Source: Piscinibacter sp. (GTDB lineage Bacteria > Pseudomonadota > Gammaproteobacteria > Burkholderiales > Burkholderiaceae_C). From it: DNA of 64,000 nt. A model generated the notes under the pieces. It ran no database searches. It was not told the DNA's origin and was given only the letters and a program-made list of their open reading frames with translations. Every line of letters starts with the position of its first letter. The stretch's first letter is position 1. Location of the stretch: the NCBI GenBank assembly GCA_017983795.1, contig JAGOAS010000005.1, positions 117,955 through 181,954 of the forward strand, read 5' to 3'. The translations under genes and the position numbers were made by a program. Positions 3,431 to 52,863 of this stretch are shown piece after piece.

Positions 3431-4399
3431 GTGCGCCACATCGCGCACGAGGTATCGCGCCAGCACGGCGACGCCACGGCGCTGTGTCGCGGACTCGGCT
3501 TCAGCCCGGCTGACCTCGAGCGCGTCGACTTCCGCGTCTCCTACGCCCAGACCGGCCGCGTGATCGTGCGCGCCCAGCAGCTGCTGGGTGACCCCCATCT
3601 CGGCCTGCGCCTCGGCACCAGCTTCAGCCTCGTCTCCTGGGGGCTGTGCCTGGTCGGCATGATGGCCTCGCCCACCGCGCGCGAGGCACTCGACTTCGCG
3701 CTCGACTTCCTGCCCTCGACCGAACGCTTCCTGCGCCTGCAGCGCGACGACGCCGAGGGCCAGCTCGCCGCCACCGCCGAGCCGATGCACGACGACGACG
3801 CCGAGGTCTCGCGCTTTCTCGTCGAGCATGCCTTCGCGGCGCTCACGCGCGCCTGCCGCTTCGTGGTCGGCCCGTGGTACGGCCCCAAGCGCGTCGAGTT
3901 TCGCGCCGACGCCCCGGCGGACCCGCGCGGCCACGAGGAGGCGTTCGGCTGCCCGGTGCTGTTCGGCTACCGCGTCGACCGCCTGGTGTTCGACCCGATC
4001 GATCAACCGGTCGCCACCGCCGACGCGCTGGTCGCGCGGCTGTGCCGCCACCAGCTCGAACAGCGTGCCGGCGCCGGCGCGCCCTCCGAGCTGGAAGCGG
4101 TGATCGTGCGCGCGCTGCGCGCGGACCTGCGCTCGCCGCCGACGATGGCGGCGATCGCCACCTCGATCAACGTCAGCGAGCGCACCCTGCGGCGCCGCCT
4201 CGTCGACGCCGATCTCTCCTACGCCGGCCTGCTCGACCAGGAGCGCATGCGCCGCGCGCTCGGCCTGCTCGGCGCCAGCGAGGCGCCGATGGCGCGCGTC
4301 GCCGCGGAAGCCGGCTTCTCCGACGCGCGCAGCCTGCGCCGCGCGATCAAGCGCTGGACCGGGCAGACGCCCTCGGCCCTGCGTCGCCATGGGGACTGA
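3431..4399 (+). CDS. AraC-family transcriptional regulator (OruR/ArgR-like)
   Basis: DNA-binding regulator with an N-terminal arabinose-binding-like effector domain and a C-terminal double helix-turn-helix of AraC type. The second half shows the HTH region SINVSERTLRRRLVDADLSY and the second helix pair ARVAAEAGFSDARSLRRAIKRWTGQTPSALRR. The reading frame is open further upstream to a TTG at 3263, but that stretch is an Arg/Pro-rich run with no ribosome site. I chose GTG 3431 because GGAG lies 9 nt before it and the conserved domain begins there (322 aa). Its stop overlaps the start of the following kinase by 11 nt, so the two are probably co-translated. Effector unknown. Confidence 0.75.
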   Translation: MRHIAHEVSRQHGDATALCRGLGFSPADLERVDFRVSYAQTGRVIVRAQQLLGDPHLGLRLGTSFSLVSWGLCLVGMMASPTAREALDFALDFLPSTERFLRLQRDDAEGQLAATAEPMHDDDAEVSRFLVEHAFAALTRACRFVVGPWYGPKRVEFRADAPADPRGHEEAFGCPVLFGYRVDRLVFDPIDQPVATADALVARLCRHQLEQRAGAGAPSELEAVIVRALRADLRSPPTMAAIATSINVSERTLRRRLVDADLSYAGLLDQERMRRALGLLGASEAPMARVAAEAGFSDARSLRRAIKRWTGQTPSALRRHGD

Positions 4400-5963
4400 G
4401 CCGCAGGCCCGGTGGACGCAGCTGCACGGCGTGCTGCAGCAGGCCAGCGACGCGATCATCACGATCGACGTGCAGCAGCGCGTGGTGTTCTTCAACCGCG
4501 CCGCCGAGCAGGTATTCGGCGTGGCCGCGCACGAGGCGCTCGGCCAGCCGCTGGACCGCTTCATCCCGCAGCGCCAGCAGATGGCGCACCGGCTGCACGT
4601 CGACCGCTTCGGCCGCAGCGGCAAGACCGCGCGCCAGATGGGCCGGCTGCACGAGCTCGCCGGCCGGCGCGCCGACGGCGAGGTCTTCCCGATCGAAGCC
4701 TCGATCTCGCGCTCCGGCGCGGGCGAGGAGCAGCTGATGACGGTACTGCTGCGCGACGTCGGCACGCTGCGCGAGGCCGAGGCGCAGCAGGCGGCCCAGG
4801 CGCGCGCGGAAGCCGCGCGCCGCGCGATGGCCGAGTTCATCGGCCGGCTCGGCCACGAGATGCGCACGCCGCTGAACGCCGTGCTCGGCTTCTCGCAGCT
4901 GCTGCAGACCGACGAGCACGAGCCGCTCGCGCCCGGGCAGCGGCGCCGCGTCGAGCAGATCCGCACGGCGGGCTGGCACCTGCTGCGCCTGCTGGCCGAC
5001 GCCTCCGACCCCGCGGTGCTGGAAAGCGGCGCGCTGCGCCTGGAGCTGGCCAGCGTGGCGCCGCTGGCGGTGATCGACGAGGCGCTGGCCATCTGCGAAA
5101 CCGCGGCGCGCGCCCGCGGCATCGCCGTGCACGTGCACGAGCGCGGCACACAGGCGCCGCTGCACGTGCAGTGCGACCCGCTGCGCCTGCGCCAGGTGCT
5201 CATCAACCTGCTGTCCAACGCCGTCAAGTACAACCGCGACGGCGGCGCGATCGACATCCACCTGCGCCGCGACGACGCCGGCGTGAGCATCGAGGTGGTC
5301 GACACCGGCATCGGCATGACGCCCGAGCAGCTCTCGCACCTCTACGAACCCTACAACCGCCTCGGCCGCGAGCGCGAGGTGGCCGAGGGCAGCGGCATCG
5401 GCCTGGTGCTGACGCGCCAGCTCGTCGAGCGCATGCACGGCCGCCTCGAGATCGACAGCGAGGCCGGGCGCGGCACGCAGGTGCGCGTCACCCTGCCGGC
5501 CGCCGAGGTGGCGCCGGGGCTGCCCGAGACCCCTCCGCCGCCGCCCGCGCCGGCACGCGGCGCGGACGACGAGGCGCTGCCGGGCGCCGTGGTGCTCTAC
5601 GTCGAAGACAACCCGGTCAACGTGCTGCTGGTCGAGCAGCTGCTCGCGCGCTGGCCGCAGATCGGGCTGGTGCACGCGGAGGACGGCCACGCCGGACTGG
5701 AACTCGCGCGCCGCCTGCAGCCCGACCTCGTGCTGCTCGACATGCACCTGCCCGACATGAGCGGCCTGCAGGTGCTGGCCGCGCTGCGCAGCGACCCCGC
5801 CACCGCATCGCTGGGCGTGGTGGCGCTGTCCGCCAGCGCCGAAGCCGACGACATGCAGCGCGCCCGCGAGGCCGGCGCGATCGAGTACTGGACCAAGCCG
5901 CTGGACATGCACGGCTTCCACGCCGACGTGGCGAGGGCGCTGGGGCGGCGGGTGGTGGCATAG
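4389..5963 (+). CDS. PAS hybrid histidine kinase with C-terminal receiver
   Basis: Soluble hybrid sensor kinase of 524 aa with no membrane segment. The order is PAS domain (about residues 10-125), HisKA with the phospho-accepting H156 in GRLGHEMRTPL, HATPase with N277 in LLSNAVKYN and the G-boxes DTGIGM and GSGIGL, a Pro-rich linker at about 375-395, then a receiver domain with D451 in LVLLDMHLPDMSG and the conserved Lys in YWTKPLD. It should autophosphorylate and pass phosphate to its own receiver. It lacks a visible HPt or output domain, so a separate partner is expected. The start ATG overlaps the AraC gene, tying the two into one unit. The signal is unknown. Confidence 0.88.
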   Translation: MGTEPQARWTQLHGVLQQASDAIITIDVQQRVVFFNRAAEQVFGVAAHEALGQPLDRFIPQRQQMAHRLHVDRFGRSGKTARQMGRLHELAGRRADGEVFPIEASISRSGAGEEQLMTVLLRDVGTLREAEAQQAAQARAEAARRAMAEFIGRLGHEMRTPLNAVLGFSQLLQTDEHEPLAPGQRRRVEQIRTAGWHLLRLLADASDPAVLESGALRLELASVAPLAVIDEALAICETAARARGIAVHVHERGTQAPLHVQCDPLRLRQVLINLLSNAVKYNRDGGAIDIHLRRDDAGVSIEVVDTGIGMTPEQLSHLYEPYNRLGREREVAEGSGIGLVLTRQLVERMHGRLEIDSEAGRGTQVRVTLPAAEVAPGLPETPPPPPAPARGADDEALPGAVVLYVEDNPVNVLLVEQLLARWPQIGLVHAEDGHAGLELARRLQPDLVLLDMHLPDMSGLQVLAALRSDPATASLGVVALSASAEADDMQRAREAGAIEYWTKPLDMHGFHADVARALGRRVVA

Positions 5964-6104
5964 GTGGCGCAAGAGGCCCGTCACCGCTGCTTCTGCTGAT
6001 CCAGGGCAGGGCGCGCCAGCGTCAAGAACTGCACGCTTCACGGCAGGCGTTGCGATTGACCCGGCATCGCACTTGTGCGAGCTTCGCCGAGAAGCCTGCG
6101 CGCC

Positions 6105-6196
6105 AATAGGAAAGCCCGGCACGAAGCCGGGCTTGGGTACGGATCCCTCGCGGGATCCTTATTGCAGCAACGGCTCTCACCCCGGATAGCTACAAC
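6105..6196 (-). ncRNA. tracrRNA of the type II-C CRISPR system
   Basis: On the minus strand the RNA begins GUUGUAGCUAUCCGGGG. It contains an anti-repeat (6174-6194) perfectly complementary over 21 nt to the 3' part of the CRISPR repeat. A small bulge follows, then GCUGCAAU, which pairs, with G-U wobbles, to the repeat 5' end GUUGUAGC. This matches the Neisseria meningitidis tracrRNA plan, including the shared run GCUGCAAUAAGG (Neisseria GCUACAAUAAGG). Downstream are a 7-bp hairpin (GGATCCC/GGGATCC, 6141-6158) and a 9-bp terminator hairpin. Expected length is about 92 nt. It guides crRNA maturation and loads Cas9. The ends are inferred from promoter spacing and terminator. Confidence 0.92.
6112..6134 (-). 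terminator. Rho-independent terminator of tracrRNA
   Basis: Perfect 9-bp inverted repeat AAGCCCGGC / GCCGGGCTT with a 5-nt loop. On the minus strand it is followed by a short U-rich tail (TTCCTATT). Its position at the end of the tracrRNA matches the terminal hairpin that II-C tracrRNAs retain for Cas9 binding. Confidence 0.85.
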
Positions 6197-6202
6197 AAGA
6201 CC

Positions 6203-6231
6203 ATTATGGGAGACCTCGGCATGACTGGCAA
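6203..6231 (-). promoter_or_regulatory. tracrRNA promoter overlapping the cas9 start
   Basis: Reading the minus strand, TTGCCA (6226-6231, 5/6 to the sigma-70 -35 box) is followed by exactly 17 bp and CATAAT (6203-6208, 5/6 to the -10 box). The predicted start, 7 nt downstream at 6196, is the first G of the anti-repeat. The -35 box lies inside the first codons of cas9 and the -10 box overlaps the upstream alternative ATG, so polymerase here and translation or transcription of cas9 share the same DNA. Confidence 0.8.
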
Positions 6232-9200
6232 CCCGGCCGCGCATCCGCTCACTTTCGGCTTCGACATCGGCATTGCATCGGTCGGCTGGGCAGTGCTCGA
6301 CGACAGGCGCATCGTCGACCACGGCGTCAGAGCCTTCGACAAGGCAGAGACTGCGGATCGCGGCGAGCCACTGAACCTTGCTCGACGAACGGCCCGGTTG
6401 CTGCGCCGGCGCCTGCGTCGCCGGGCCTGGCGTCTCGTACGAGTGGCTCGGCTGCTCAAACGCGAAGGTCTCATTGCCGATTCGCGCTGGTTCCTCGCGC
6501 AACCGTCGTTTGCAGACTCCACCTGGCGCCTGCGCATCGAAGGCCTGAACCGACGGCTCAGCGACGAGGAGTGGGCCCGAGTGATCTACCACCTGTGCAA
6601 GCACCGCGGCTTCCATTGGACAAGCCGCGCCGAGGAGCGCATGGCCGAGGCCGACGCCCAGGGCGAAGGAGGCAAGGTCAAGCAGGGGCTTGCGGGCACC
6701 GAACGGCTGATGAAGCAGAAGAACTACCGCAGCATCGCCGAGATGGTGCTGGCGGAGTTTCCCGAAGCGCAGCGCAACAAGCAGGGTGAGTACACCAAGG
6801 CGCTGCCGCGCCGACTGCTCGGTGACGAGTTCGCGCTACTGTTCAGGCGCCAGCGCGAGTTGGGTCAGCCGCATTCCGGCGAAGGCCTCGAAGCGGCGCT
6901 GCTCGAACCGAAGAAGGGCTTGTTCTGGACTCAGAAGCCGTCGCTCACCGGTGAAGCACTGCTTGCCATGCTGGGCCGCTGCACCTTCGAGCGCGCCGAG
7001 TACCGCGCACCTCGCGCCAGCTTCACGGCGGAACGACACGTATGGCTGACGCGTTTGAACAACCTGCGCATCGTCGTCGACGGAATTGTTCGTCCGCTGA
7101 ACCCTGCTGAGCGCGACGCCGCCCTGCCCTTGCCCTATGAGCTCGTGCAAGTCACCTTCAAGCAGCTCCACGCGGCGCTGGTCGACAAGGCCGGGCTCCC
7201 CGACGAGGCGACGTTCTCGGGCCTGCGTCCGGCGAAGGAGGGCAAGGATCCGCTGTCGGAGCGGCTCATCCGGTTGCCGGCATGGCAGGAACTGCGCACC
7301 ACCCTCAAGAGAGCGAACCTGGAAACGGAATGGAAGAGCATCGCTGGCGCGGCCGTGGGTGGCTCGCCGGGACTGCTCGACGATATCGCGCGGGTGTTGA
7401 GCGTCTACAAGGAAGACGACGAGGTCCGCGCCGAACTGGCCCGCCTGCCACTGCCTGGAGCCCGCAGTGCCGTCGCCAATGCGCTGCTCGACATCCGCTT
7501 CGAGGGCTTTCACGCGCTGTCGCTGAAGGCGCTGCGCAAGATCGTGCCGCTGATGGCGACGGGTTTGCGCTACGACGAGGCCTGCGTGCAGGCGGGCTAT
7601 CACCACAGCCAGATCGTCGAGCCGGGAAGCGGCGAGCACGATCTGCTGCCGCCTTTCTACAAGTATCGTGACCGCAGCGGCCGGATGGTGTTGCGCGACG
7701 ACGGTGACATCCCACGCAACCCGGTGGTGCTGCGCGCACTGAACCAGGCGCGCAAGGTCATGAACGCGCTGGTGCGACGATACGGCGCACCCGCTGAAGT
7801 GCATATCGAGATGGCGCGCGATCTGTCGCGCGACTTCGATGAGCGTCGCAAGATCGAGAAGGAGCAGTCCCAATTCCGCGAGCGCAACGAGAAGGATCGC
7901 CAGGACTTCGCGCAAGCCTTTCACATCGCAGGTCGCGTGCAGGGCAGCGATTTCGAGAAGTGGCGGCTTTACCGCGAGCAGCAGGGCAAGTGCGCGTACT
8001 CGCTGAGCGCGATCGACGTTGACCGGCTCTTGGAACCCGGCTACGTCGAGGTCGACCATGCGCTGCCCTACTCGCGCAGCTTCGACGACAGCAAAAACAA
8101 CAAGGTACTCGTGTTCGCGAGCGAGAACCGCACCAAAGGCAACCTTACGCCCTGGGAGTACCTCGGCGGCGCACAGGACAGCGAGCGCTGGCGCCACTTC
8201 GCAGCATTCGTTCAGGCCAACAAGGCCTACCGAATCGCCAAGCGTTCGCGCCTACTGCGCAAGGACTTCGACGAGAAGGCGGCCGCTGAGTTCATGGACC
8301 GCAATCTGAACGACACGCGCTACGTGTGCCGTTTCTTCAAGAACTACGTCGAACGCCATCTCAAGCTGGCCCACGGCAGCAGCGCCAAGCGCTGTGTGGT
8401 GCTGAGCGGCCAGCTGACGGCCTTCCTGCGCGTGCGCTGGGGTCTGCTGAAGTTGCGCGCGGAGAGCGATCGACATCACGCGCTCGATGCGGCGGTCATC
8501 GCGGCATGCAGCCATGCGCTGGTCAAGCGTCTGTCGGACTACTCGCGCCGTCGCGAACTGGAACAGGTGCGCTCGGGCTTCGTCGATCCCGCCACCGGCG
8601 AGATCGTCGACCTCGCGGCATTGCGGCAGCTCGAACAAGCCTTCCCAGCGCCCTGGCCGCATTTCCGGCACGAGCTGGAGGGGCGGCTGAAGATCGACGA
8701 TGCGGAACAGCTGCGCGCGGAGATGGCACGGTTCGGCACCTATCCGGCCGACGCGCTGGAGGCGTTGAGGCCGCTGTTCGTGTCGCGCGCGCCGCAGCGG
8801 CGCAATGGCGGCGCGGCCCACAAGGACACCATCTATGGCCAATCGGCGCGAATGAAGGCGAGTGGCAGCGTTACCCAGAAAGTGCCCTTGCAGAGTCTCA
8901 CGTTGAAAGACTTGGACCGCTTGGCCGATCCACAGCGCAATCAGAAGCTCTATGCGGCCATTCGCGCTCGCCTCGAGATGCATGGCGGCAAAGGCGACAA
9001 GGCCTTCCCGGCCGATGCCCCGCTTCGCAAACCGGGCCGGGACGGCATGCCGGATGGTCCGGTCGTCCGAACCGTGACGATGGTGGTCGAGAAGATGTCG
9101 GGCATCCCGATCCGCGGCGGCATCGCGAAGAACGATTCGATGCTGCGCATCGACGTGTTCAGCAAGAACGGGAAGTTCCATCTGGTGCCGGTGTATGTGC

Positions 9201-9544
9201 ACCACCGGGTCAGCGGACTGCCGAATCTCGCGATCGTGGCCCACAAAGACGAATCAGAGTGGCCAGCCATGGACGAGACCTTCTTGTGGTGCTTCTCTGT
9301 CTATCCGAACGACCTGCTCCGGGTCACATTGAAACGAGAGACTCATCAAGGCTACTACGCGGGATGTGATCGTGGGTCCGGCACCATCAACATATGGACG
9401 CACGACCGGAGCCGGAGCGTAGGCAACGAAGGACTCATTCGAGGCATCGGCGTCAAGACCGCTCTGAATATCGAGAAGTTCAACGTAGGCGTCCTCGGCG
9501 ACGTCCATCCCGCCAAGCCGGAGAAGCGCCGTGGTCTGGCGTAG
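6221..9544 (+). CDS. cas9: CRISPR-associated endonuclease Cas9, subtype II-C
   Basis: RNA-guided DNA endonuclease, about 1107 aa, near the length of Neisseria Cas9 (1082). I chose ATG 6221 because GGGAG sits 8 nt upstream; ATG 6206 in frame has no such site. From this start: RuvC-I D15 (FGFDIGIASVGWA), Arg-rich bridge helix at about 55-83, compact REC lobe, RuvC-II E530 (HIEMARD), HNH D612/H613 and N636 (YVEVDHALPYS, ASENRTKGN), RuvC-III H753 and D756 (DRHHALDAA), then the PAM-interacting C-terminus. All catalytic residues are present, so it should be active. In the segment matching the Neisseria PAM-reading region (AGCDRGSGTINI) key residues differ: D1050, S1053 and T1055. First gene of cas9-cas1-cas2. 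By eye it is less GC-rich than its neighbours, consistent with transfer. Confidence 0.97.
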   Translation: MTGNPAAHPLTFGFDIGIASVGWAVLDDRRIVDHGVRAFDKAETADRGEPLNLARRTARLLRRRLRRRAWRLVRVARLLKREGLIADSRWFLAQPSFADSTWRLRIEGLNRRLSDEEWARVIYHLCKHRGFHWTSRAEERMAEADAQGEGGKVKQGLAGTERLMKQKNYRSIAEMVLAEFPEAQRNKQGEYTKALPRRLLGDEFALLFRRQRELGQPHSGEGLEAALLEPKKGLFWTQKPSLTGEALLAMLGRCTFERAEYRAPRASFTAERHVWLTRLNNLRIVVDGIVRPLNPAERDAALPLPYELVQVTFKQLHAALVDKAGLPDEATFSGLRPAKEGKDPLSERLIRLPAWQELRTTLKRANLETEWKSIAGAAVGGSPGLLDDIARVLSVYKEDDEVRAELARLPLPGARSAVANALLDIRFEGFHALSLKALRKIVPLMATGLRYDEACVQAGYHHSQIVEPGSGEHDLLPPFYKYRDRSGRMVLRDDGDIPRNPVVLRALNQARKVMNALVRRYGAPAEVHIEMARDLSRDFDERRKIEKEQSQFRERNEKDRQDFAQAFHIAGRVQGSDFEKWRLYREQQGKCAYSLSAIDVDRLLEPGYVEVDHALPYSRSFDDSKNNKVLVFASENRTKGNLTPWEYLGGAQDSERWRHFAAFVQANKAYRIAKRSRLLRKDFDEKAAAEFMDRNLNDTRYVCRFFKNYVERHLKLAHGSSAKRCVVLSGQLTAFLRVRWGLLKLRAESDRHHALDAAVIAACSHALVKRLSDYSRRRELEQVRSGFVDPATGEIVDLAALRQLEQAFPAPWPHFRHELEGRLKIDDAEQLRAEMARFGTYPADALEALRPLFVSRAPQRRNGGAAHKDTIYGQSARMKASGSVTQKVPLQSLTLKDLDRLADPQRNQKLYAAIRARLEMHGGKGDKAFPADAPLRKPGRDGMPDGPVVRTVTMVVEKMSGIPIRGGIAKNDSMLRIDVFSKNGKFHLVPVYVHHRVSGLPNLAIVAHKDESEWPAMDETFLWCFSVYPNDLLRVTLKRETHQGYYAGCDRGSGTINIWTHDRSRSVGNEGLIRGIGVKTALNIEKFNVGVLGDVHPAKPEKRRGLA

Positions 9545-10445
9545 CGTCGTCATCTCCAAACCGGCCAAGCTGCGTCGCGAGCACTTCTCGCTCGTCGTCG
9601 AACAGGAGCAGGCGGCAACGGTGCCGTTCGAGGACATCGCCGTCATCGTGCTCAACCACCGCGAGATCACGCTGACACATCCCGTGCTGTCGGCTTGCGG
9701 CGAGTACGGCATCGGCTTGTTCGCCACCGGCGACAACCACCAGCCCGCCGGCGTCTTCATGCCCTTTCTCTCGCACAGCCGCAGCACGCGCATGCTGCGG
9801 CTGCAGCTCGACATCGACAGGCCATCGGCGAAACGAGCGTGGGCCGAGATCGTCAAGGCGAAGATTGCCAACCAGGCCGAATGCATGCGGCTATACGGCG
9901 CTCAAGGCGCCGACCGCCTCGACTCCTATGCGCGCCGCGTGCGGTCGGGCGACACCGGCAACATGGAGGCACAGGCCAGCGCGTACTACTTCCCGCAGGT
10001 GTTCGGTCGCAGCTTTCACCGCAGCCAGGAAGGCTGGACGAACTCGGCGCTCGACTATGGATATGCCGTGCTTCGCGGCGCGATCACGCGCGCGCTGGTG
10101 GCGCATGGGCTGCATCCCAGCGTCGGCCTGTTCCACGCCAGCGAGCAGAACGCCTTCAACTTGGCCGACGACCTGATCGAACCCTTCCGGCCGCTGGTGG
10201 ATCTGCACGTCGCGAAGAACCGCGTGCCGCAGGACGGCGAGGACAACGAGTTGTCGCCGGCGGACAAGGTCGCTCTCGTCGGCTTGCTCAATGTCGACAT
10301 GCGCATGCCGCGCGGAGAGATGACCGTCCTGTCGGCGATCGAGCATGCGACGGAAGCGATCGCCAGGTTGTTTGACGGTGCCAGCGAGACCTTGCTGGAG
10401 TTGCCGTCGCTGATCGGCTTGCGTCAGCATCGCATCGAGGCATAG
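9531..10445 (+). CDS. cas1: CRISPR integrase Cas1, subtype II
   Basis: Metal-dependent integrase that, with Cas2, inserts new spacers into the array. At 304 aa it is normal for type II. The catalytic triad is visible as E146 (SGDTGNMEAQA), H202 (GLFHASEQN) and E217 (LADDLIEPFRPL), with the same 15-residue H-to-E spacing as other subtype II Cas1 proteins. The opening VWRSVVIS and the SGDTGN motif match the Neisseria protein. It starts with GTG and overlaps the end of cas9 by 14 nt, indicating coupled translation. No csn2 or cas4 is present, which defines the minimal II-C gene set. Confidence 0.95.
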   Translation: MVWRSVVISKPAKLRREHFSLVVEQEQAATVPFEDIAVIVLNHREITLTHPVLSACGEYGIGLFATGDNHQPAGVFMPFLSHSRSTRMLRLQLDIDRPSAKRAWAEIVKAKIANQAECMRLYGAQGADRLDSYARRVRSGDTGNMEAQASAYYFPQVFGRSFHRSQEGWTNSALDYGYAVLRGAITRALVAHGLHPSVGLFHASEQNAFNLADDLIEPFRPLVDLHVAKNRVPQDGEDNELSPADKVALVGLLNVDMRMPRGEMTVLSAIEHATEAIARLFDGASETLLELPSLIGLRQHRIEA

Positions 10446-10450
10446 ACACT

Positions 10451-10783
10451 GTGAGCAAGGACACGAGGCGCTTCATGAGGCTGATGGTGTTCTTCGATCT
10501 GCCGGTAGTCACGAAGTCGGAGCGGCGGGCTTATACGCAGTTCAGACGCTTTCTGCTCAACGACGGCTACGACATGATCCAGTTCTCCGTGTACGGGCGG
10601 ATCCTCAACGGCAACGACGCGGAGGAGAAGCACATGAAGCGGCTGCTGGACAACCTCCCGCCGGAAGGCTCGGTGCGCGTGCTCTCGGTCACCGAGAAGC
10701 AGTACCCGAGCATGAAGCTGCTCGTCGGCATGCCTCTGTTTCAGGAAAAACAGGTCAATGCCGCGCAGATCCTGCTGTTCTGA
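10451..10783 (+). CDS. cas2: CRISPR-associated protein Cas2
   Basis: Small ferredoxin-fold protein of 110 aa forming the Cas1-Cas2 spacer integration complex. The first strand LMVFFDLP carries the conserved Asp, followed by the usual helix TKSERRAYTQFRRFL and strand GYDMIQFSVYGRI. It starts with GTG 5 nt after the cas1 stop and is the last gene of the operon. A strong hairpin begins 19 nt after its stop. Confidence 0.95.
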   Translation: MSKDTRRFMRLMVFFDLPVVTKSERRAYTQFRRFLLNDGYDMIQFSVYGRILNGNDAEEKHMKRLLDNLPPEGSVRVLSVTEKQYPSMKLLVGMPLFQEKQVNAAQILLF

Positions 10784-10802
10784 AAGTGGATTCCTCAAAG
10801 GA

Positions 10803-10835
10803 AAACCCGCGCCAAGCGAGACTTGGCGCGGGTTT
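10803..10835. terminator. Bidirectional terminator between cas2 and the CRISPR array
   Basis: Perfect 14-bp inverted repeat AAACCCGCGCCAAG / CTTGGCGCGGGTTT with a 5-nt loop. On the plus strand it would end the cas9-cas1-cas2 transcript. On the minus strand it is followed by TCCTTT and would end the precursor crRNA. It lies exactly between the two converging units. Confidence 0.8.
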
Positions 10836-10846
10836 CCGCGGGGCCG

Positions 10847-11553
10847 GAGTGTAGCTATCCGGGGTGAGAGAGGGAGCTACAACCCCTTCGATGCCCAAGA
10901 ACACCGGCGCGAAGAGTGTAGCTATCCGGGGTGAGAGAGGGAGCTACAACCACTTGCGGCACGTCTTGCGGAAGCGGTCAGAGTGTAGCTATCCGGGGTG
11001 AGAGAGGGAGCTACAACGTCGTTGGCGAACTGCGCGCCGAAGAAGATGAGTGTAGCTATCCGGGGTGAGAGAGGGAGCTACAACTCGCCGCGCTGGGTGG
11101 CCTGACGATCGCCGGAGTGTAGCTATCCGGGGTGAGAGAGGGAGCTACAACCCTGACTGCTCGTCTCCGGCGTGCCGGAGAGAGTGTAGCTATCCGGGGT
11201 GAGAGAGGGAGCTACAACCAGCATGCCCGCCAGCGCCCATGATTCCGCGAGTGTAGCTATCCGGGGTGAGAGAGGGAGCTACAACCTGGACATGCGCGAA
11301 GCGAGGCGCGGCGACGAGTGTAGCTATCCGGGGTGAGAGAGGGAGCTACAACTGGGAAGATGAAGGACCGTCTTCACCTCTGGAGTGTAGCTATCCGGGG
11401 TGAGAGAGGGAGCTACAACGGGATCGGCATCGCCTTGGTCCCATCCGCCGAGTGTAGCTATCCGGGGTGAGAGAGGGAGCTACAACCGGCCGTGGCATTA
11501 AGTGCAACGCGGAGAGGAGTGTAGCTATCCGGGGTGAGAGAGGGAGCTACAAC
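10847..11553 (-). CRISPR. Type II-C CRISPR array, 11 repeats and 10 spacers
   Basis: Eleven repeats occur with an exact 67-bp period (36-bp cores starting at 10848, 10915, 10982, 11049, 11116, 11183, 11250, 11317, 11384, 11451 and 11518). By my reading every copy is identical. On the minus strand the repeat opens GUUGUAGCUCCCUCUCUCAC, continues CCCGGAUAGCUACACU and closely follows the Neisseria meningitidis repeat. The base 5' of each core on the plus strand is always G, so the true unit is 37 bp with ten 30-nt spacers. crRNA orientation is minus, opposite to the cas operon, as expected for II-C and required by the tracrRNA pairing. Perfect repeats at both ends give no degenerate trailer. Spacer targets were not identified. 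Confidence 0.98.
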
Positions 11554-11594
11554 GAAATGCGCGGAGCCGGCTTGCACCCGGCTCCGCGCATTTC
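11554..11594. terminator. Perfect 17-bp hairpin abutting the array (leader-side terminator-like element)
   Basis: GAAATGCGCGGAGCCGG and its exact reverse complement flank a 7-nt loop (CTTGCAC). The first arm starts at the base immediately after the last repeat, so it occupies the position where a leader would meet the array in crRNA orientation. It lies between parE and the array. It has the A-rich 5' arm and T-rich 3' arm of a bidirectional terminator but no clean T run outside the stem. It may stop parDE transcription before the array, or serve as a structural leader mark. Confidence 0.65.
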
Positions 11595-11646
11595 GACGGG
11601 CTTCGCCCTCACTGGTCTTGAAGCCGCTGCCGCTCCAAGACCACGA

Positions 11647-11958
11647 CTACTCCACGTCGATGCGTTCGCGGTCCTGGCGGTGCGCGACCAGACGCGCGAC
11701 GTCCACATGGTCGCTGCGCTCGAAGTACCAGAGACTCATCGGAAAGCCGTCGATGGGCCATGCGCGCAAGCCATCGACGTCGAGCACCTGGCCGATGCGT
11801 GGTGAGCCGAGCCCTGGCTGCATCGAAAGTCGGCGCTCAGCTTGACGAAGGCTCTTCATCAGCTTCCTGGCCACGGTGCTACCCGCCTCACGCTGGTGGT
11901 AGGCCACCTCGCGGCGCATGTCTGCCTTGGCTGTCGGCCGGAGGCGAACCGGCTTCAC
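11647..11958 (-). CDS. parE: ParE/RelE-family toxin
   Basis: 103 aa toxin of the ParE/RelE superfamily. ParE proteins usually block DNA gyrase, while RelE proteins cut mRNA on the ribosome; the sequence does not decide which. Typical features are an early helix with ADMRREVAYHQREAG, GLGSPRI, the strand LRAWPIDGFPMSLWYFERSD and the final DVARLVAHRQD. It starts with GTG overlapping the parD stop by 4 nt (GTGA). Its stop is 93 bp from the first CRISPR repeat and it is transcribed toward the array. Confidence 0.88.
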   Translation of the reverse strand: MKPVRLRPTAKADMRREVAYHQREAGSTVARKLMKSLRQAERRLSMQPGLGSPRIGQVLDVDGLRAWPIDGFPMSLWYFERSDHVDVARLVAHRQDRERIDVE

Positions 11959-12209
11959 GCGGCCTTGCCGTCAGCGATGGCGTCGAGTTCGGCCCAATCG
12001 GCCTTGGTCATCGGCGTTGCCGGCCCGCTGGCCAAGCCTTCCTCAAGCAGCGCTCTGAGCCGCAAGCGTTCCTGGTCTCGTTGGTCGCGGCGGATGAGTT
12101 CGCGAACGTACTCGCTGGTGTTTCCGTAATGGCCCGCCGACACCCGCTCGGCCACGTAGGCCCGCATGGGCTCGGGCAAGGCGATGTTCATCGTGCTGGT
12201 GTTGCTCAT
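11955..12209 (-). CDS. parD: ParD-type antitoxin (ribbon-helix-helix)
   Basis: 84 aa antitoxin with an N-terminal ribbon-helix-helix DNA-binding domain (MNIALPEPMRAYVAERV, then SEYVRELIRRDQ) and a C-terminal tail that should wrap the toxin. It neutralises ParE and represses its own promoter in this family. ATG 12209 was chosen because the frame upstream encodes only hydrolase shadow sequence and the promoter ends just before it. The RHH domain closely resembles that of the second ParD at 52559-52807. Confidence 0.9.
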   Translation of the reverse strand: MSNTSTMNIALPEPMRAYVAERVSAGHYGNTSEYVRELIRRDQRDQERLRLRALLEEGLASGPATPMTKADWAELDAIADGKAA

Positions 12210-12215
12210 GCGGCG

Positions 12216-12244
12216 ATGCTGATCCGATTGGCAATAGTTGTCAA
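12216..12244 (-). promoter_or_regulatory. parD promoter with tandem operator half-sites
   Basis: On the minus strand: TTGACA (12239-12244, 6/6), a 17-bp spacer, then CAGCAT (12216-12221, weak), with 6 nt to the parD ATG. Two half-sites TTGACAA (12238-12244) and TTGCCAA (12228-12234) lie 10 bp apart, one helical turn, with the first overlapping the -35 box. A transcript starting at normal distance would be essentially leaderless. The -35 box overlaps the stop codon of the hydrolase gene. Confidence 0.6.
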
Positions 12245-13077
12245 CCCGCGAAGAAACGCTCCACCAACGCGAACTGCTCCGGCGTGTTGAGCGCGGGGGC
12301 ATGGCCGCAGCCGGCGATCTCGACCACCACGGCGCGCGGGCCGCGGTTGCGCATGGCTTCCGCGGTCTCGGGCAGCAGCAGGTCGGAGGCCTCGCCGCGC
12401 AGGCACAGCACCGGGATGTCCAGCGTGTCCCACTCGTCCCAGCGCCGGTAGTCGTCGGCATGGTGGGTGAACTGCATCACCATCGCCGGGTCGTAGTGCG
12501 GCGTCACGCGGCCGTCGCTCAGGCGGCGCGTCGAGGTCTCGGTGAGGCGGCGCCATTGCGCGTCGCTCAACCAGCCATAGGGTTTGTAGATGGTGCGGAA
12601 GTACTGCTCGAGCTCGCTCACCGTGGCGAACGCCGCCGGGCTGCCGGCATAGCTGCGGATGCGCTGCAGCGCGGGCTCGGCGAGTTGCGGGCCGATGTCG
12701 TTGAGCAGCAGGCGGCGGATGCGGCCGCGCAGCGTGGTGGCCGCCGCCAGCGTGCCGATGGCGCCGCCCATCGAGGTGCCGAGCCAGTGGAAGCGCGCGA
12801 TGCCGAGCGCATCCACCAGCGCGGTGGCGAGCTTCACGTAGAAATCCAGGCAGTACTCCTGCTCCGGCGCCGGGCTCCACTGGCTGAGCCCGCGCCCGAT
12901 GGTGTCGGGGCAGATCACGCGCCAGCGCTGCGAGAGGTGCGCCGCGATGTCGTCCATGTCGCGCCCGGTGCGCGCCAGGCCGTGCCAGGCGATCACCGTC
13001 TCGGCGTGCTGCGCGCCCCACTCGGTGTAGTGGAGCTCGCGGCCTTCGCACTGAACGTAGTTCGACGTGAAGCTCAT
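12241..13077 (-). CDS. Alpha/beta hydrolase
   Basis: 278 aa alpha/beta-hydrolase-fold enzyme. Nucleophile S102 lies in the elbow LGTSMGG, the acid is probably the Asp in GEASDLL, and the base is His in GCGHAP. Gly-containing VIAWHGLARTG forms the oxyanion-hole region. ATG 13077 is favoured by AGAAGG just upstream and overlaps the livM stop by 4 nt, so it is the last gene of the ABC importer operon. A plausible role is hydrolysing an ester, amide or lactone imported by that transporter; substrate unknown. Confidence 0.85.
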   Translation of the reverse strand: MSFTSNYVQCEGRELHYTEWGAQHAETVIAWHGLARTGRDMDDIAAHLSQRWRVICPDTIGRGLSQWSPAPEQEYCLDFYVKLATALVDALGIARFHWLGTSMGGAIGTLAAATTLRGRIRRLLLNDIGPQLAEPALQRIRSYAGSPAAFATVSELEQYFRTIYKPYGWLSDAQWRRLTETSTRRLSDGRVTPHYDPAMVMQFTHHADDYRRWDEWDTLDIPVLCLRGEASDLLLPETAEAMRNRGPRAVVVEIAGCGHAPALNTPEQFALVERFFAG

Positions 13078-17949: not shown

Positions 17950-18897
17950 TCAGCGCAGCATCGCGCGCATCAGCGGCAGCTGCGGCGAGGGGCCGGTGAC
18001 GCCGGCATCGAAGGGGTGGCTGACGCGCCCGTAGCCGCCGAGGATGCGCGCCACGTAGGCGCGCGTCTCGGCATAGGGCGGCACGCCGCGGTAACGGTTC
18101 ACCGCGCCCTCGCCGGCGTTATAGGCCGCCGCCACCAGGGGCACGTTGCCCTCGAAGTAGGCCATCAGCCAGCTCAGGTAGGCCATGCCGCCGCGGATGT
18201 TCTGCTCGGCGTCGTAGGGGCGCGCCACGCCGAAGCGCGCCGCCGTCTCGGGGATCAGCTGCATCAGGCCCTTGGCGTTCTTGGGCGAGAGCGCGATGGT
18301 GTCGTAGTTCGATTCGACCTTGATGAAGGAAAGCACCAGCGTCGGCGAGAGCCGGTACTGCGCCGCGTGGCGCTTGACGATGTCGACGATGTGGCGCGGC
18401 GCATCGGGCGGGATCACCTCGATCGGCGGCGCGGCTGCCACCCGCGGCGGCGGCGGCGCCATCTGCGGCGGCGCACGGTCGATCATGCACTCGGGCACGT
18501 AGTTGGGCGGGCCGCCGACGGTGGCGAGCATGCGCACCGCCTGCTCCAGGCCCTGCTCGGCGGCGGCGTGGAAGAAGAAGGCTGCGGTGGCATCGCTGCG
18601 CTCCACGCCGCGGCCGTTGGCATACATCCAGCCGAGGTTGAACTGCGCTTGCGCGTCGCCCAGCCGGGCCGCCTTGCAGTAGAGCGCGGCGGCCTTCACG
18701 GCGTCGCGCTCCACGCCTTCGCCGTTCTCGTAGCCCAGCGCTTCCTGGCGCAGCAGGGAACGCACGCTGCGCTCCTCCTCGGTCTCGGGCGTATGCACGG
18801 CGGCCTGCGCCGGTGCCACCAGCAGCATCAATTGCATGATTGCCGGACAGAGTCCGCGCAACAATTGCCTGAATTCCGGACAACGCAGGGGACTCAT
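17950..18897 (-). CDS. Lytic transglycosylase with Sel1-like repeats
   Basis: 315 aa exported protein. After a signal-like hydrophobic N-terminus (LCPAIMQLMLLVAPAQA) come about two Sel1/TPR-like repeats (ALYCKAARLGDAQAQFNLGWMYANGRGV), a Pro-rich linker, and a C-terminal SLT lysozyme-like domain from about residue 175. Catalytic Glu is in FIKVESNYD, with the GLMQLIPETAARFGV and AAYNAGEGAV motifs. It should cleave peptidoglycan glycan strands. ATG 18897 overlaps the stop of the sigma-54 activator by 4 nt. A weak hairpin (17911-17931, GCCCTC/GAGGGC) follows its stop. Confidence 0.88.
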   Translation of the reverse strand: MSPLRCPEFRQLLRGLCPAIMQLMLLVAPAQAAVHTPETEEERSVRSLLRQEALGYENGEGVERDAVKAAALYCKAARLGDAQAQFNLGWMYANGRGVERSDATAAFFFHAAAEQGLEQAVRMLATVGGPPNYVPECMIDRAPPQMAPPPPRVAAAPPIEVIPPDAPRHIVDIVKRHAAQYRLSPTLVLSFIKVESNYDTIALSPKNAKGLMQLIPETAARFGVARPYDAEQNIRGGMAYLSWLMAYFEGNVPLVAAAYNAGEGAVNRYRGVPPYAETRAYVARILGGYGRVSHPFDAGVTGPSPQLPLMRAMLR

Positions 18898-20375
18898 GAG
18901 GCCAGCTTCTCGTAGAGCGTGGCGCGCGAGATGCCGAGCAGGCGCGAGGCCGCCAGCTTGTTGCCGCCGGTGGCCTGCAGCGCCTCGCGGATCGCCTGCG
19001 CTTCCAGCTCGGCAACGGCCTGCGGCAGCGACTTCACGCCGGCCACGCGCGGCGCCGCGGCCGATGCTGCCGGCTCGGCCGGCGCCGCAGGCAGCGGCGC
19101 GCTGACCGCATCCGGCGTGCCCAGCACGGCGGCGAAGTGGCGCGCCCCCAGCACCAGATCGTCGGTCATCAGGCTGGCCTGCTCGAGCACGTTGCGCAGC
19201 TCGCGGATGTTGCCCGGCCAGGGCTGGCGCGCCAGCAGTTCCAGCGCGTCGACCGCCAGGCTCTTGTGCGGCATGCCGCTGCGCCGCGCGATGTCGTCGG
19301 CCAGCGCGTCGGCGAGCGATTCCAGGTCGGCCAGGCGCTCGCGCAGCGGCGGCACGCGGATCGGCAGCACGTTGAGGCGGTAGTAGAGGTCGGCGCGGAA
19401 CGTACCGGCGCGCACCATGGCGGCGAGGTCGCGGCTGGTGGCGGCGATCACGCGCACGTCGACATGCTGCACCTGGTTGCTGCCCAGCGGCTCCACCTCC
19501 TGCTCCTGCAGCACGCGCAGCAGCTTGGCCTGCAGCGGCAGCGGCATGTCGCCGATCTCGTCGAGGAAGAGCGTGCCGCCGTGCGCCAGCTTGAACTTGC
19601 CGTCGCGGCCCTTGCGGTCGGCGCCGGTGTAGGCGCCCGGCGCGACGCCGAAGAACTCGGCCTCCAGCAAGGTGTCGGGCACGGCCGCGATGTTGACGCC
19701 GACGAAGGGCTTGGCCGCACGCGCGCTCGCCGCGTGGATGGCGTGGGCGAGCAGCTCCTTGCCGGTGCCGGTTTCGCCCAGCAGCAGCACCGTGCTGTCG
19801 GTCTGCGCGACGCGGCGCGCCTGGCGCTTGACCTCCATCGCCGCCGTGCTCGCGCCGATGAAGCTCGCGATGCTGTGCTTGGGCCGGCGTTCGCGCGTCA
19901 GGTGCTCGGCGAGCTGCTGGCGGGCGTTGTCGAGGTCGCGCTGCAGACGGCTGAACTTGCCGATCAGCGGTTGCATGGTCGTCTCGGGATGGTCGAGCAG
20001 CACCATGCCCATCGCGCCGATCACCTGGCCGCCCGCATCGCGCAGCGGCAGGCGGCTGACGAGGAAGGTGCCGGCCTGGTTGGTGAGCAGGTCCACCAGG
20101 ATGGGCTGGCCGGTCTCGATGACCTGCGCCATCAGCGTGTTGGGCACCACCTCCTCGACGCGCCGGCCGACGAAGTCGCGCTCGTCGGCATGGCCGAGCG
20201 CCGGCAGGAAGCGCTTGTAGCCCTCGCTGATCCAGACGATGCGGTGCGCGCGGTCGACCACCATCATGCCCATCGCGGTCTGCGCGAAGGTGTCGAACAT
20301 CGACTGCGCGGCCAGGCGCAGCAGGCTCGCGGCATCCAGCGGCAGGGTCGGTCCGGAATGGGGCGAAACGGGCAT
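18894..20375 (-). CDS. Sigma-54-dependent transcriptional activator with PAS domain
   Basis: 493 aa enhancer-binding protein. N-terminal PAS domain (about 20-130), AAA+ domain with Walker A GETGTGKE, the sigma-54 contact loop as GAYTGA (variant of GAFTGA), Walker [10 protein letters not shown] and arginine-finger region [14 protein letters not shown], then a Fis-type HTH at the C-terminus ([24 protein letters not shown]). It should open sigma-54 promoters in response to a signal sensed by the PAS domain. The Tyr in the GAFTGA loop is a known natural variant. Start ATG 20375; the frame further upstream is shadow sequence. Targets unknown; candidates are the adjacent liv operon or its own downstream gene. 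Confidence 0.9.
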
Positions 20376-20384
20376 CGGGCCGGG

Positions 20385-20407
20385 CAGTGTCGGAAAGGCG
20401 GACACTG
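20385..20407. promoter_or_regulatory. Inverted repeat in the leader of the sigma-54 activator gene
   Basis: CAGTGTC and GACACTG form perfect 7-bp arms separated by 9 nt, 10 nt upstream of the activator ATG (20375). The position in the 5' leader suggests autoregulation by the activator or another dimeric regulator, or an RNA hairpin. No -24/-12 promoter was found here. Confidence 0.4.
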
Positions 20408-20451
20408 TAGCCGGGCCCGCCCCGCCAGACACCCATTCATCCGCAGGGTCG

Positions 20452-20480
20452 TTGTAATTATGAATTAGCAATCGTAGACT
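20452..20480 (+). promoter_or_regulatory. Promoter and probable GntR operator ahead of the malonate operon
   Basis: An AT-rich island in GC-rich surroundings. It contains TTGTAA (20452-20457) and TAGACT (20475-20480) with a 17-bp spacer, each 4/6 to consensus. An imperfect dyad TTGTAATT-ATG-AATTAGCAA (20452-20471) fills the -35 to spacer region, where a bound dimer would block polymerase. The FCD-type GntR gene starts 40 bp downstream, so autorepression released by malonate or malonyl-CoA is likely. Confidence 0.45.
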
Positions 20481-20519
20481 GGCTCGCAGCGCAGCTCGCG
20501 CGGCCTTCGAAAGTGGCGC

Positions 20520-21209
20520 ATGGCAGATCCGATTCCCCTGCGTCCTTCCTCGCTTCACGAGGAAGTGGCCACTCGCCTGAGAAACATGATCTTCGAGCGC
20601 CAGCTGGCGCCCGGGCAGTGGATCGACGAGCTGGCGCTGGCGCGCGAGTGGCAGATCAGCCGCACGCCGCTGCGCGAGGCGCTCAAGGTGCTGGCCGCCG
20701 AAGGGCTGGTGCTGCCGGTGCCGCGCCAGGGCTGCAAGGTGGCCGAGATGTCGGAGGACGAGGCTGACGAGCTGCTGCCCATCATGGCCCTGCTGGAAGG
20801 GCGCTGCGCCTACGAGGCGGTGCGCAAGGCCGGCGAGGCCGACATCCGCCGCCTGCAGCAGCTGCATGCGCAGCTCGAACGCCATGCCGCGGCGCAGGAC
20901 ATCGAGGCCTACTACCGCGCCAACCACGAGTTCCACAGCGCCGTGCAGGCGCTCGCCGCCAACCGCTGGCTGGACCGCGCCACAGGCGACCTGCGCCGCT
21001 TCGTGCGCCTGCTGCGCGGCCGCCAGCTGCACTGGCCGGGGCGCATCGAGGCCTCGATCAACGAGCACCGCGTGCTGCTCGACGCCATCGTGCAGCGCGA
21101 CGCCGCGCGCGCCGAGCGTGTCATGCACGACCACCTGATGGCGCAGCTCGCCGCGCTGAAGGCGCTGCGCCAGAGCGAACGTGCCCAGGGAGCCCCGCAT
21201 GCTGGATGA
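20520..21209 (+). CDS. GntR-family regulator, FCD subfamily (MatR-like)
   Basis: 229 aa regulator. N-terminal winged helix (LHEEVATRLRNMIFERQLAPGQWIDELALAREWQISRTPLREALKVLAAEGLV) and C-terminal all-helical FCD effector domain with metal-binding His/Asp candidates (NHEFHSAV, NEHRVLLDAI, MHDHL). It precedes and overlaps malonyl-CoA decarboxylase, so a role as malonate-responsive repressor is inferred by analogy with Rhizobium MatR. Confidence 0.85.
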   Translation: MADPIPLRPSSLHEEVATRLRNMIFERQLAPGQWIDELALAREWQISRTPLREALKVLAAEGLVLPVPRQGCKVAEMSEDEADELLPIMALLEGRCAYEAVRKAGEADIRRLQQLHAQLERHAAAQDIEAYYRANHEFHSAVQALAANRWLDRATGDLRRFVRLLRGRQLHWPGRIEASINEHRVLLDAIVQRDAARAERVMHDHLMAQLAALKALRQSERAQGAPHAG

Positions 21210-22497
21210 GCTGAAGAATGCAGCGCGCAACCTCAACGGCGCGCGCCAGCTGCGCGGCCTGCTGATCGACTGCCGGCGGCTGCTCTCCGAACGCGGCGAG
21301 GCCAACAGCGTGGCGATCGCGCGCGACCTGGTGGCGCGCTTCCGCGAGCTGCCCGAGGATGCGCAGGCGACCTTCTTCGAGCGCCTCTCGCGCGATTTCA
21401 GCCCCGACCCCAAGGCCGTGCTGGCGAGCGCGCGCGCCTACGCCGAGACACCCAACGCCGCCACGCTGCAGCGCCTGACGCGCAGCGCCGAACCGCCACG
21501 CCAGGAGCTGCTGCGCCGCATCAACCGCTCGCCCGGCGGCACCGGCAGCATCGTCGCGATGCGCCGCGCGCTGCTGCAGCGCATGCGCGAGCAGCCCGAG
21601 CTGCAGGCGGTCGAGGCCGATTTCCTGCACCTGCTGTCGAGCTGGTTCAACCCCGGCTTCCTCAGGCTCGAACGCGTCGACTGGAACTCGCCGGCGCAAC
21701 TGCTCGAGCAGATCATCCGCCACGAGGCGGTGCACCAGATCGACGGCTGGGACGACCTGCGCCGCCGCCTGCAGCCCGATCGCCGCTGCTTCGCCTTCTT
21801 CCACCCGCAGCTGCCGGCCGAGCCGCTGATCTTCGTCGAGGTGGCGCTGCTGCCGGCCATGCCGGCGGCCATCGCGCCGCTGATCGACAAGGCCTCCGAG
21901 CCGCTGCCGGCGAGCCAGTTCAAGGTGGCGGCGTTCTACTCGATCAGCAACTGCCAGCCCGGGCTCAAGGGCGTGTCGCTGGGCAACTTCCTGATCAAGC
22001 GCGTGGCCGATGAGCTGAAGCGCGAGCTGCCGCAGCTCAAGACCTTCTGCACGCTCTCGCCCATCCCCGGCTTCGCGCGCTGGGTGAAGGCCGGCGCGCG
22101 CTGCGAGGGCCTGCCGAAAGCCCGTGCGCAGCGCGTGCTGCAGGCCCATGCGGCCGTGCTCGACGCCTGCGGCGGCGATCTCGACAAGCTGGCCCAGACC
22201 GCCACCCTGCGCGCGCTGGCCGAACCCGCCGGCGAGGCGCTGCTGCGCCTGGCCGCCTACTACCTCGGCTGGCACGCCACCGCGCCCGACGGCGACCCGG
22301 TGGCGCGCTTCCACCTCGACAACGGCGCGCGCCTGGAGCGGCTCGACCCGCTCGGCGACCTGTCCGAGAAGGGGCGCCGCCAGTCCTGGGGCATGATGGT
22401 CAATTACCTCTACGACCTCGACCGCATCGAGGCCCACCACGAGAAGTTCGTCCACGGAGAAGTGGCACAGTCACGGCTCCTGACGTCGTTGCTCTGA
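21199..22497 (+). CDS. matA: Malonyl-CoA decarboxylase
   Basis: 432 aa enzyme converting malonyl-CoA to acetyl-CoA and CO2. The N-terminal helical oligomerisation region is followed by the catalytic GNAT-like domain. Family hallmarks are RRCFAFFHPQLPAEPLIFVEVALLP, FYSISNCQPGLKGVSLGNFLIKRV, and FCTLSPIPGFARW, where the catalytic Ser is expected, with the His in the VARFHLDNGARLERL region. ATG 21199 was chosen because GGGAG lies upstream; it overlaps the GntR gene end by 11 nt. Together with the synthetase downstream it completes malonate to acetyl-CoA. Confidence 0.93.
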   Translation: MLDELKNAARNLNGARQLRGLLIDCRRLLSERGEANSVAIARDLVARFRELPEDAQATFFERLSRDFSPDPKAVLASARAYAETPNAATLQRLTRSAEPPRQELLRRINRSPGGTGSIVAMRRALLQRMREQPELQAVEADFLHLLSSWFNPGFLRLERVDWNSPAQLLEQIIRHEAVHQIDGWDDLRRRLQPDRRCFAFFHPQLPAEPLIFVEVALLPAMPAAIAPLIDKASEPLPASQFKVAAFYSISNCQPGLKGVSLGNFLIKRVADELKRELPQLKTFCTLSPIPGFARWVKAGARCEGLPKARAQRVLQAHAAVLDACGGDLDKLAQTATLRALAEPAGEALLRLAAYYLGWHATAPDGDPVARFHLDNGARLERLDPLGDLSEKGRRQSWGMMVNYLYDLDRIEAHHEKFVHGEVAQSRLLTSLL

Positions 22498-52247: not shown

Positions 52248-52562
52248 TCAGGCTTCGTTCATCCACGCCGGAATGTCTCGCTTCTCGTGAAGCACGCGCC
52301 AGACGTCGATCTGCTCGTCGCGTTCGATGTAGAAGACCAGGTAGGGGTAGCGCCCAAGAGGCCAGAATCTCAGATCTGCGAGCCCGAGCTGGTGCGCATA
52401 GCGCGGGGATCCCGCCGCCGGATGGCGTGCGATATGCGCGTATGCCTTCTCGAGCTCGTCGACGAATCCCAGGGCGACCTTCGCAGAGGCTTCGGCCAAG
52501 TAGCGATCGATTGCCTCCTCGACATCCCTGTTGGCGAGTTCCCGGGGGACGACGACCTTCAC
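52248..52562 (-). CDS. parE: ParE/RelE-family toxin (second module)
   Basis: 104 aa toxin. Typical pieces are VEEAIDRYLAEASAKVALGFVDELEKAYAHIARHPAAGSPRY, LRFWPLGRYPYLVFYIERDEQIDVWRVLHEKRDIP. The toxin is clearly diverged from the first ParE at 11647-11958, while the antitoxins' DNA-binding parts are alike. It overlaps parD by 4 nt (ATGA). Confidence 0.9.
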   Translation of the reverse strand: MKVVVPRELANRDVEEAIDRYLAEASAKVALGFVDELEKAYAHIARHPAAGSPRYAHQLGLADLRFWPLGRYPYLVFYIERDEQIDVWRVLHEKRDIPAWMNEA

Positions 52563-52807: not shown

Positions 52808-52813
52808 CGGGAC

Positions 52814-52842
52814 ATCATAGAAATCTTGGCAAACTTTGGCAA
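52814..52842 (-). promoter_or_regulatory. Second parD promoter with tandem operator half-sites
   Basis: On the minus strand: TTGCCA (52837-52842, 5/6), 17-bp spacer, TATGAT (52814-52819, 5/6), then 6 nt to the parD ATG. Two identical half-sites TTGCCAA (52836-52842 and 52826-52832) lie 10 bp apart. The geometry is identical to the first parDE promoter. Confidence 0.75.
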
Positions 52843-52863
52843 ACGACTTGCGGCAGGCGGCAT

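What the first reader, a model, noticed from the sequence alone, without database searches (positions are those of the whole stretch)
6105..11594. Compact, apparently complete type II-C CRISPR-Cas9 locus with a likely uncharacterised Cas9
tracrRNA, cas9, cas1, cas2 and an 11-repeat array occupy about 5.5 kb. All RuvC and HNH catalytic residues, the Cas1 triad and a 21-nt perfect repeat:anti-repeat match are visible. Subtype II-C follows from the absence of csn2 and cas4 and the close resemblance to the Neisseria meningitidis system. The GC-rich betaproteobacterial host and the roughly 1107 aa size make it a useful comparison ortholog.
Basis: partly seen in the sequence, partly recalled or inferred. 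Interest (0 to 1): 0.8.

Follow-up and report, generated by a model that had tools for sequence, protein, structure and literature searches.

The report
Complete type II-C CRISPR-Cas9 locus
This is an apparently intact, ordinary bacterial immune system of the compact Cas9 kind, from a large and little-studied group in betaproteobacteria, whose DNA array ends in an unusual hairpin that probably silences a useless guide RNA.

Summary
At 6105-11594 there is a complete II-C locus: divergent tracrRNA, cas9 (1107 aa, or 1112 from an upstream ATG), cas1, cas2, and 11 identical 37-nt repeats with ten 30-nt spacers. It belongs to a large, mostly betaproteobacterial clade: 251 stretches encoding a relative were confirmed in GTDB contigs and the best 80 kept, at 55-70% identity. 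The anti-repeat core lies upstream of cas9 on the opposite strand in 81 of 81 loci and co-varies with the repeats. So it is a new member of a known kind, probably acquired as an island: none of 7 congeners searched matches it.

(2) A PAM of N4C is predicted from one Cas9 residue and agrees with 3 of 3 close protospacers. (3) The oldest repeat abuts a perfect 18-bp hairpin. Fold-backs in the same place, with different sequences, occur at 23 of 56 distinct array ends, mainly where that repeat is undecayed. This fits a 2025 proposal that II-C systems silence the "extraneous" crRNA. Nothing was shown by experiment here.

The parts
6203..6231 (-). predicted tracrRNA promoter: -35 TTGCCA (6226-6231), 17-nt spacer, -10 CATAAT (6203-6208); its -35 box overlaps the first cas9 codons (ATG 6221)
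   Evidence: Only sigma-70-like site listed in 5900-12300; shuffles give 0.8 on average, so the count itself is no evidence, the position is; similar sites in relatives
6105..6196 (-). tracrRNA: anti-repeat, hairpin, terminator-like hairpin
   Evidence: Co-fold with the repeat; anti-repeat core in the same place and strand in 81 of 81 loci; co-varies with repeat
6221..9544 (+). cas9, 1107 aa (or from ATG 6206, 1112 aa)
9368..9370 (+). codon for Asp at the position of Nme1Cas9 H1024 (residue 1050 from ATG 6221), predicts C at PAM position 5
   Evidence: alignment, rule from PMC9433092
9531..10445 (+). cas1
10451..10783 (+). cas2
10803..10835 (.). 14-bp perfect hairpin with A3/T3 at its ends between cas2 and array; possible two-way terminator
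   Evidence: the scan lists a minus-strand terminator-like site at 10820-10806
10847..11553 (-). CRISPR array, 11 identical 37-nt repeats, ten 30-nt spacers, transcribed leftward (inferred)
   Evidence: direction from pairing with the tracrRNA
11553..11595 (-). array-end hairpin, 18-bp perfect stem (17 bp without the repeat's last base), fills the guide position of the extra repeat
11598..11608 (-). second small hairpin (GGGC TTC GCCC)
   Evidence: 4-bp stem; at least 4 bp in 21 of 23 elements
11647..12209 (-). parE/parD toxin-antitoxin pair; lies inside the inserted segment, not part of the CRISPR machinery

Best explanation
A complete II-C CRISPR-Cas9 adaptive immune locus. Steps inferred from sequence and homology: the tracrRNA starts at about 6196 on the minus strand, pairs with the repeat of each crRNA, and loads Cas9. 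crRNAs run leftward, probably from promoter elements inside the repeats. Cas9 cuts DNA whose protospacer is followed by N4C. Cas1-Cas2 add spacers at the cas-proximal end. The oldest repeat (distal end) has no spacer upstream; a hairpin occupies that guide position and extends to the repeat junction, so that any read-through 'extraneous' crRNA is folded and useless. Shown here by sequence: gene families, repeat:anti-repeat pairing with co-variation, the hairpin's recurrence with compensatory changes in two pairs of related loci, and one spacer's close match to mobile elements. Nothing was shown by experiment.
For: Families. Best PDB hits are II-C Cas9s of the Nme/Hpa kind (the species names are recalled). 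Own anti-repeats pair with own repeats at 944 of 1008 positions in 63 loci; 1000 shuffles average 779, maximum 834. A promoter-like site in the right place. Spacer 7 protospacer 29 of 30 in L128, L138, L139 (twice), L140. D-type PAM residue and C at +5 in 3 of 3 protospacers matching 28-29 of 30. Hairpin: 23 of 56 distinct distal ends against 4 of 54 control stretches; 19 of 31 ends with an undecayed last repeat against 4 of 25 with a decayed one, Fisher p 0.0009. Repeat decay is seen in 13 of 42 visible distal ends but 1 of 63 cas-proximal ones, as expected if the distal end is the old one. Matches the II-C picture in PMC12080349.
Against: No expression or cleavage data. The repeat-internal -10 here is TACACT, weaker than the TACAAT of most relatives (41 of 63; TACACT in 14 of 63). 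Only 1 of 10 spacers has a convincing target. Six spacers were searched one by one in viral contigs: 7 hit, 9 gave only a 21-of-30 match, 1, 2, 3 and 8 gave nothing; spacers 4, 5, 6 and 10 were searched only within the whole array. For the hairpin: 12 of 31 undecayed distal ends lack it at the threshold used, and its guide-sequestering role is borrowed from a C. jejuni experiment.
Confidence: 0.9

Rival explanations
1. The locus is a decaying or silent passenger that arrived with an island and is not used by this host.
For: No match in 7 of 7 other congeners searched; only ten spacers; no close match to phage or plasmid records; locus GC 63.7% against 69.4% for the window.
Against: All three genes open, all 11 repeats identical, anti-repeat intact and a promoter-like site in place. 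Recent arrival is not inactivity.
Confidence: 0.12
2. The array-end hairpin is only a transcription terminator or insulator, not a guide-sequestering structure.
For: A minus-strand gene pair (parDE, 11647-12209) reads toward the array; PMC12080349 reports Rho-independent terminators upstream of some II-C arrays; 2 of 23 elements (L049, L241) have a T-rich end.
Against: 21 of 23 elements have 4 or fewer T in the last 8 bases before the repeat; the stem abuts the repeat, and its first junction pair, with the repeat's own last base, forms in 22 of 23; a plain terminator has no reason to keep that register.
Confidence: 0.3
3. The hairpin is a host element (REP-like or a terminator) beside which arrays were inserted, with no role in CRISPR.
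For: Sequences differ between loci.
Against: A second small hairpin follows in 21 of 23 (3.5 expected from shuffles); the stem differences between two pairs of related loci (L040/L115, L056/L078) are paired double changes (sequences); in the own genome this sequence has no second copy, only weak matches of 24 nt or less; only two perfect hairpins of 12 bp or more exist in the 64 kb and both flank the array.
Confidence: 0.1

Closest known systems
Neisseria meningitidis II-C CRISPR-Cas9 (Nme1Cas9)
   Same: Cas9 aligns over its whole length; gene order and repeat:anti-repeat layout as recalled for Nme
   Different: PAM residue is Asp where Nme1 has His1024, so N4C-like rather than N4GATT is predicted (PMC9433092, passages)
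Bordetella pseudohinzii II-C locus (PMC4624362, passages read)
   Same: Same architecture with divergent tracrRNA; that paper reports expressed cas genes and mature crRNAs; genes homologous to those of Alicycliphilus denitrificans
   Different: 36-nt repeats there, 37 here; sequences not aligned here
Relatives L039-L118, e.g. Propionivibrio limicola, Dechloromonas denitrificans, Comamonas granuli
   Same: Cas9 55-70% identical, near-identical repeats, anti-repeat in the same place
   Different: PAM residue is mixed within the clade: D in 36, H in 21, N in 15, other or gap in 9 of 81, window included
Guide-sequestering hairpins against extraneous crRNA in II-C (PMC12080349; outline, passages, sections 18 and 19 read)
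   Same: Hairpin in the guide position of the oldest repeat; mutation of that repeat as another remedy
   Different: Here the stem has a fixed register, runs into the repeat, is a perfect 13-18 bp in the best cases, and is followed by a second hairpin; that paper cites earlier work that found no hairpin formed with the extra repeat in II-C

Membership tests
CRISPR-Cas type II | Cas9 with RuvC and HNH nuclease domains | tested here: met
   TIGR01865 704 bits; HNH_4 and RuvC_III Pfam hits; D20, E535, D617, H618, N641, H758, D761 invariant in 11 orthologs (which are catalytic is recalled)
CRISPR-Cas type II | tracrRNA with anti-repeat pairing to the repeat | tested here: met
   (by sequence; no RNA data)
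Subtype II-C | cas9-cas1-cas2 only, no csn2 or cas4 in the locus | tested here: met
   ORFs and families of the locus and next neighbours
Subtype II-C | No Csn2 elsewhere in the genome | tested here: inconclusive
   No match, but the 14 control genomes gave none either; Cas4 was not searched in the genome
Subtype II-C | crRNAs transcribed from promoters inside repeats | tested here: inconclusive
   TACACT here, TACAAT in 41 of 63 arrays; no RNA data
Functional CRISPR-Cas9 | DNA cleavage and spacer acquisition | not testable with these tools
   Needs experiment
II-C extraneous-crRNA hairpin | Helix involving the guide region of the extra (oldest) repeat | tested here: met
   18-bp stem at 11553-11595
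II-C extraneous-crRNA hairpin | Reduces targeting by the extraneous crRNA | not testable with these tools
   Tested only for C. jejuni in PMC12080349

The most novel reading that the evidence does not exclude
In this betaproteobacterial II-C clade the oldest end of the array carries a dedicated two-hairpin element, in fixed register with the repeat and drifting freely in sequence while keeping its pairs, that silences the extraneous crRNA. Many lineages use either this element or decay of the last repeat. The fixed register and the pairing into the repeat would make it a distinct class from the hairpins and terminators described so far.
Probability: 0.5. Interest if true: 0.55.

Novelty: new member of a known kind. 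Interest (0 to 1): 0.4.

Why it matters
The Cas9 itself adds one more compact ortholog with a predicted single-base PAM (N4C), from a clade in which the key PAM residue switches between D, H and N among close relatives, a natural set for testing PAM rules. The array-end hairpin gives an evolution-backed test case for how II-C systems deal with the repeat that has no spacer.

Tried and rejected
Self-targeting: the whole array against the own genome gave no near-complete spacer match; the best spacer-length match was 25 of 30 (spacer 4, L033) and is treated as chance. Phage and plasmid records: only weak spacer matches in phages; the best plasmid record (Acidovorax temperans) holds one 44-bp repeat-like place matched by many repeats of the query, and was not followed up. 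Viral contigs encoding such a Cas9: none confirmed. Arrays of L110 and L088 against phage records: no match. L090, an N-type control array for the PAM test, gave 16 matches in 11 of 280 genomes; by place and length I read them as CRISPR arrays and repeats, not protospacers. So the H/N side of the rule was not tested.

Matches dropped from the PAM count because they are weak: window spacers in L033 (25 of 30, +5 is G), L130 (26, G), L131 (26, T), L132 (25, T), L136 (25, T), L137 (26, C); spacer 9 in L141 (21 of 30, +5 is G); and a spacer of the H-type array L086 in L077 (25 of 30, +5 is A, which would agree with the rule). Counting the window ones would weaken the N4C support. Integron attC sites, the phage tail genes of L139 and the integrase-like ORF of L128 were judged by eye, not by a model. 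Rfam gave nothing in the window.
Full report
What is there. The window holds, between a PAS-histidine kinase-response regulator gene (4389-5963) and an alpha/beta hydrolase gene (near 12241), a complete II-C CRISPR-Cas locus. Cas9, Cas1 and Cas2 score far above the curated cut-offs. The Cas9 start is better placed at ATG 6221 (1107 aa) than at ATG 6206: only 6221 has a Shine-Dalgarno-like GGGAG at a usual distance, and 6206 lies inside the predicted -10 box of the tracrRNA promoter. Both the tracrRNA and the crRNAs are read on the minus strand, against the cas genes.

Relatives. One cas9 was found in the own genome of 4.24 Mb. In a sample of the order, 47 of 399 genomes had a match at E 0.001 or better, own genome and distant Cas9s included. 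In GTDB contigs 251 stretches encoded a relative and the best 80 were kept, at 55-70% identity over the best segment; most of their titles name betaproteobacteria, a few are MAGs titled Bacteroidia, Zetaproteobacteria, Gammaproteobacteria and others. The host lies in the same family as the genome carrying L101 (Comamonas sp. SCN 67-35), judged from G487 having a contig of the same length with the array in the same place. Among 8 genomes of the genus only the own one matches the CRISPR part; two of the other seven are 77% and 84% complete. In G654 the aligned parts of the two flanking genes lie 62 bp apart, in G689 454 bp, against about 6.3 kb here. With a GC of 63.7% against 69.4% for the window, this points to an inserted segment that also carries parDE.

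Guide RNAs. The anti-repeat core (14 nt, up to 2 mismatches) was found upstream of cas9, on the opposite strand, in 81 of 81 loci. In the 63 loci with a detected array, own anti-repeat and repeat pair at 944 of 1008 positions, against a mean of 779 and a maximum of 834 in 1000 shuffles. A tracrRNA promoter (TTGCCA-17-CATAAT) is predicted at the right distance; it is the only such site listed in 6.4 kb, but shuffles give 0.8, so the count alone is no evidence. In the 81 loci the best promoter score averages 8.6 of 12 against 6.6 shuffled; 77 have a recognisable cas9 start, and in 63 of these the -35 box overlaps the start of cas9. This overlap suggests that the two promoters interfere, which was not tested.

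PAM. Wei et al. (PMC9433092, outline and passages) report that II-C orthologs with Asp at the position of Nme1Cas9 H1024 prefer C at PAM position 5, and those with His or Asn prefer a purine. The window protein has Asp there (residue 1050 from ATG 6221). Three spacers of D-type arrays have close protospacers: window spacer 7 with CGCGCGGA downstream, an L088 spacer with TTCACCAA or TTCACCGA in two genomes, and an L098 spacer with GAAACCAA. All three have C at position 5. With about one third C expected in such DNA, three of three is suggestive (about 0.04), not proof. Seven weaker matches of window spacers (6 at 25-26 of 30, 1 at 21 of 30) were dropped; one of those seven has C.

Spacer 7. The sequence shared by these records is 0.43-0.53 kb, with no other similarity between them. 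In L139 the gene next to it is an integron integrase (TIGR02249, 420 bits, cut-off 265), and the borders look like attC sites by eye. Phage-borne integrons are already in print (PMC9892861, start of abstract and passages), so spacer 7 most likely guards against a gene cassette carried by phages.

The array-end hairpin. The last repeat runs directly into an 18-bp perfect stem with a 7-nt loop, 11553-11595. In the whole window only two perfect hairpins of 12 bp or more (loop 3-15) were found, and both flank the array. I collected 68 distal ends from the window and fetched loci, 56 distinct by their first 45 nt, a few of them from more distant II-C systems. The eight outermost pairs of the best fold-back starting at the repeat's end are at least 7 of 8 in 23 of 56; the same statistic 70 nt further out gives 4 of 54. 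Per locus, 17 of 56 have a base-shuffle p of 0.01 or less. Two of the 23 are poor examples: L089 folds weakly and L241 is a T-rich, terminator-like hairpin. The arms differ in sequence between loci: own arms pair at 176 of 184 positions, exchanged arms at 27% (these elements were chosen for pairing, so the fair test is the control and the shuffles). Junction pairs, not used in the choice, form at 66 of 92 positions in these 23 and 44 of 132 in the rest. In two pairs of related loci (L040/L115 and L056/L078) the differences in the stem are paired double changes, read from the sequences. A second small hairpin follows in 21 of 23, against 3.5 expected.

Against and for a role. The element is present in 19 of 31 ends whose last repeat is undecayed and 4 of 25 whose last repeat is decayed (Fisher p 0.0009). 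Thus 12 of 31 undecayed ends have neither remedy at these thresholds. Some of those may be broken arrays, and L238 and L090 look like imperfect elements by eye; related loci are not fully independent, so the p value is optimistic.

What it means. Feussner et al. 2025 (PMC12080349; [quoted passage not shown] They list three remedies: upstream terminators, hairpins in its guide, and mutation of that repeat. The present data fit the second and third as alternatives within one clade. Decay of the last repeat is distal (13 of 42 visible distal ends, 1 of 63 proximal), which agrees with growth at the cas-proximal end. What appears new is the fixed register, the pairing into the repeat, the second hairpin and the compensatory changes. 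That I found none of this in print rests on two searches of an open-access library and on the parts of PMC12080349 that I read; its supplement was not read.

Verdict. The finding is real and correctly read. As a II-C locus it is one member of a populous known group. The array-end element is the part worth following.

Noticed in passing
   Followed up: partly
window 6203-6231: The predicted tracrRNA promoter overlaps the cas9 start; the same overlap was seen in 63 of the 77 loci with a recognisable start, of 81 examined. Possible mutual regulation of cas9 and tracrRNA.
   Followed up: partly
L039-L118, Cas9 position of Nme1 H1024: The PAM-determining residue switches among D, H, N and others between close relatives, a natural panel for PAM evolution.
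   Followed up: partly
window 11647-12209 and 52248-52897: Two ParE/ParD-type toxin-antitoxin pairs; the first lies inside the inserted segment next to the array. The second ParD is just below its Pfam cut-off.
   Followed up: no
window 18894-21413: Sigma-54 activator whose AAA and HTH part matches PADLOC RtcR/PspF models; probably an ordinary regulator.
   Followed up: no
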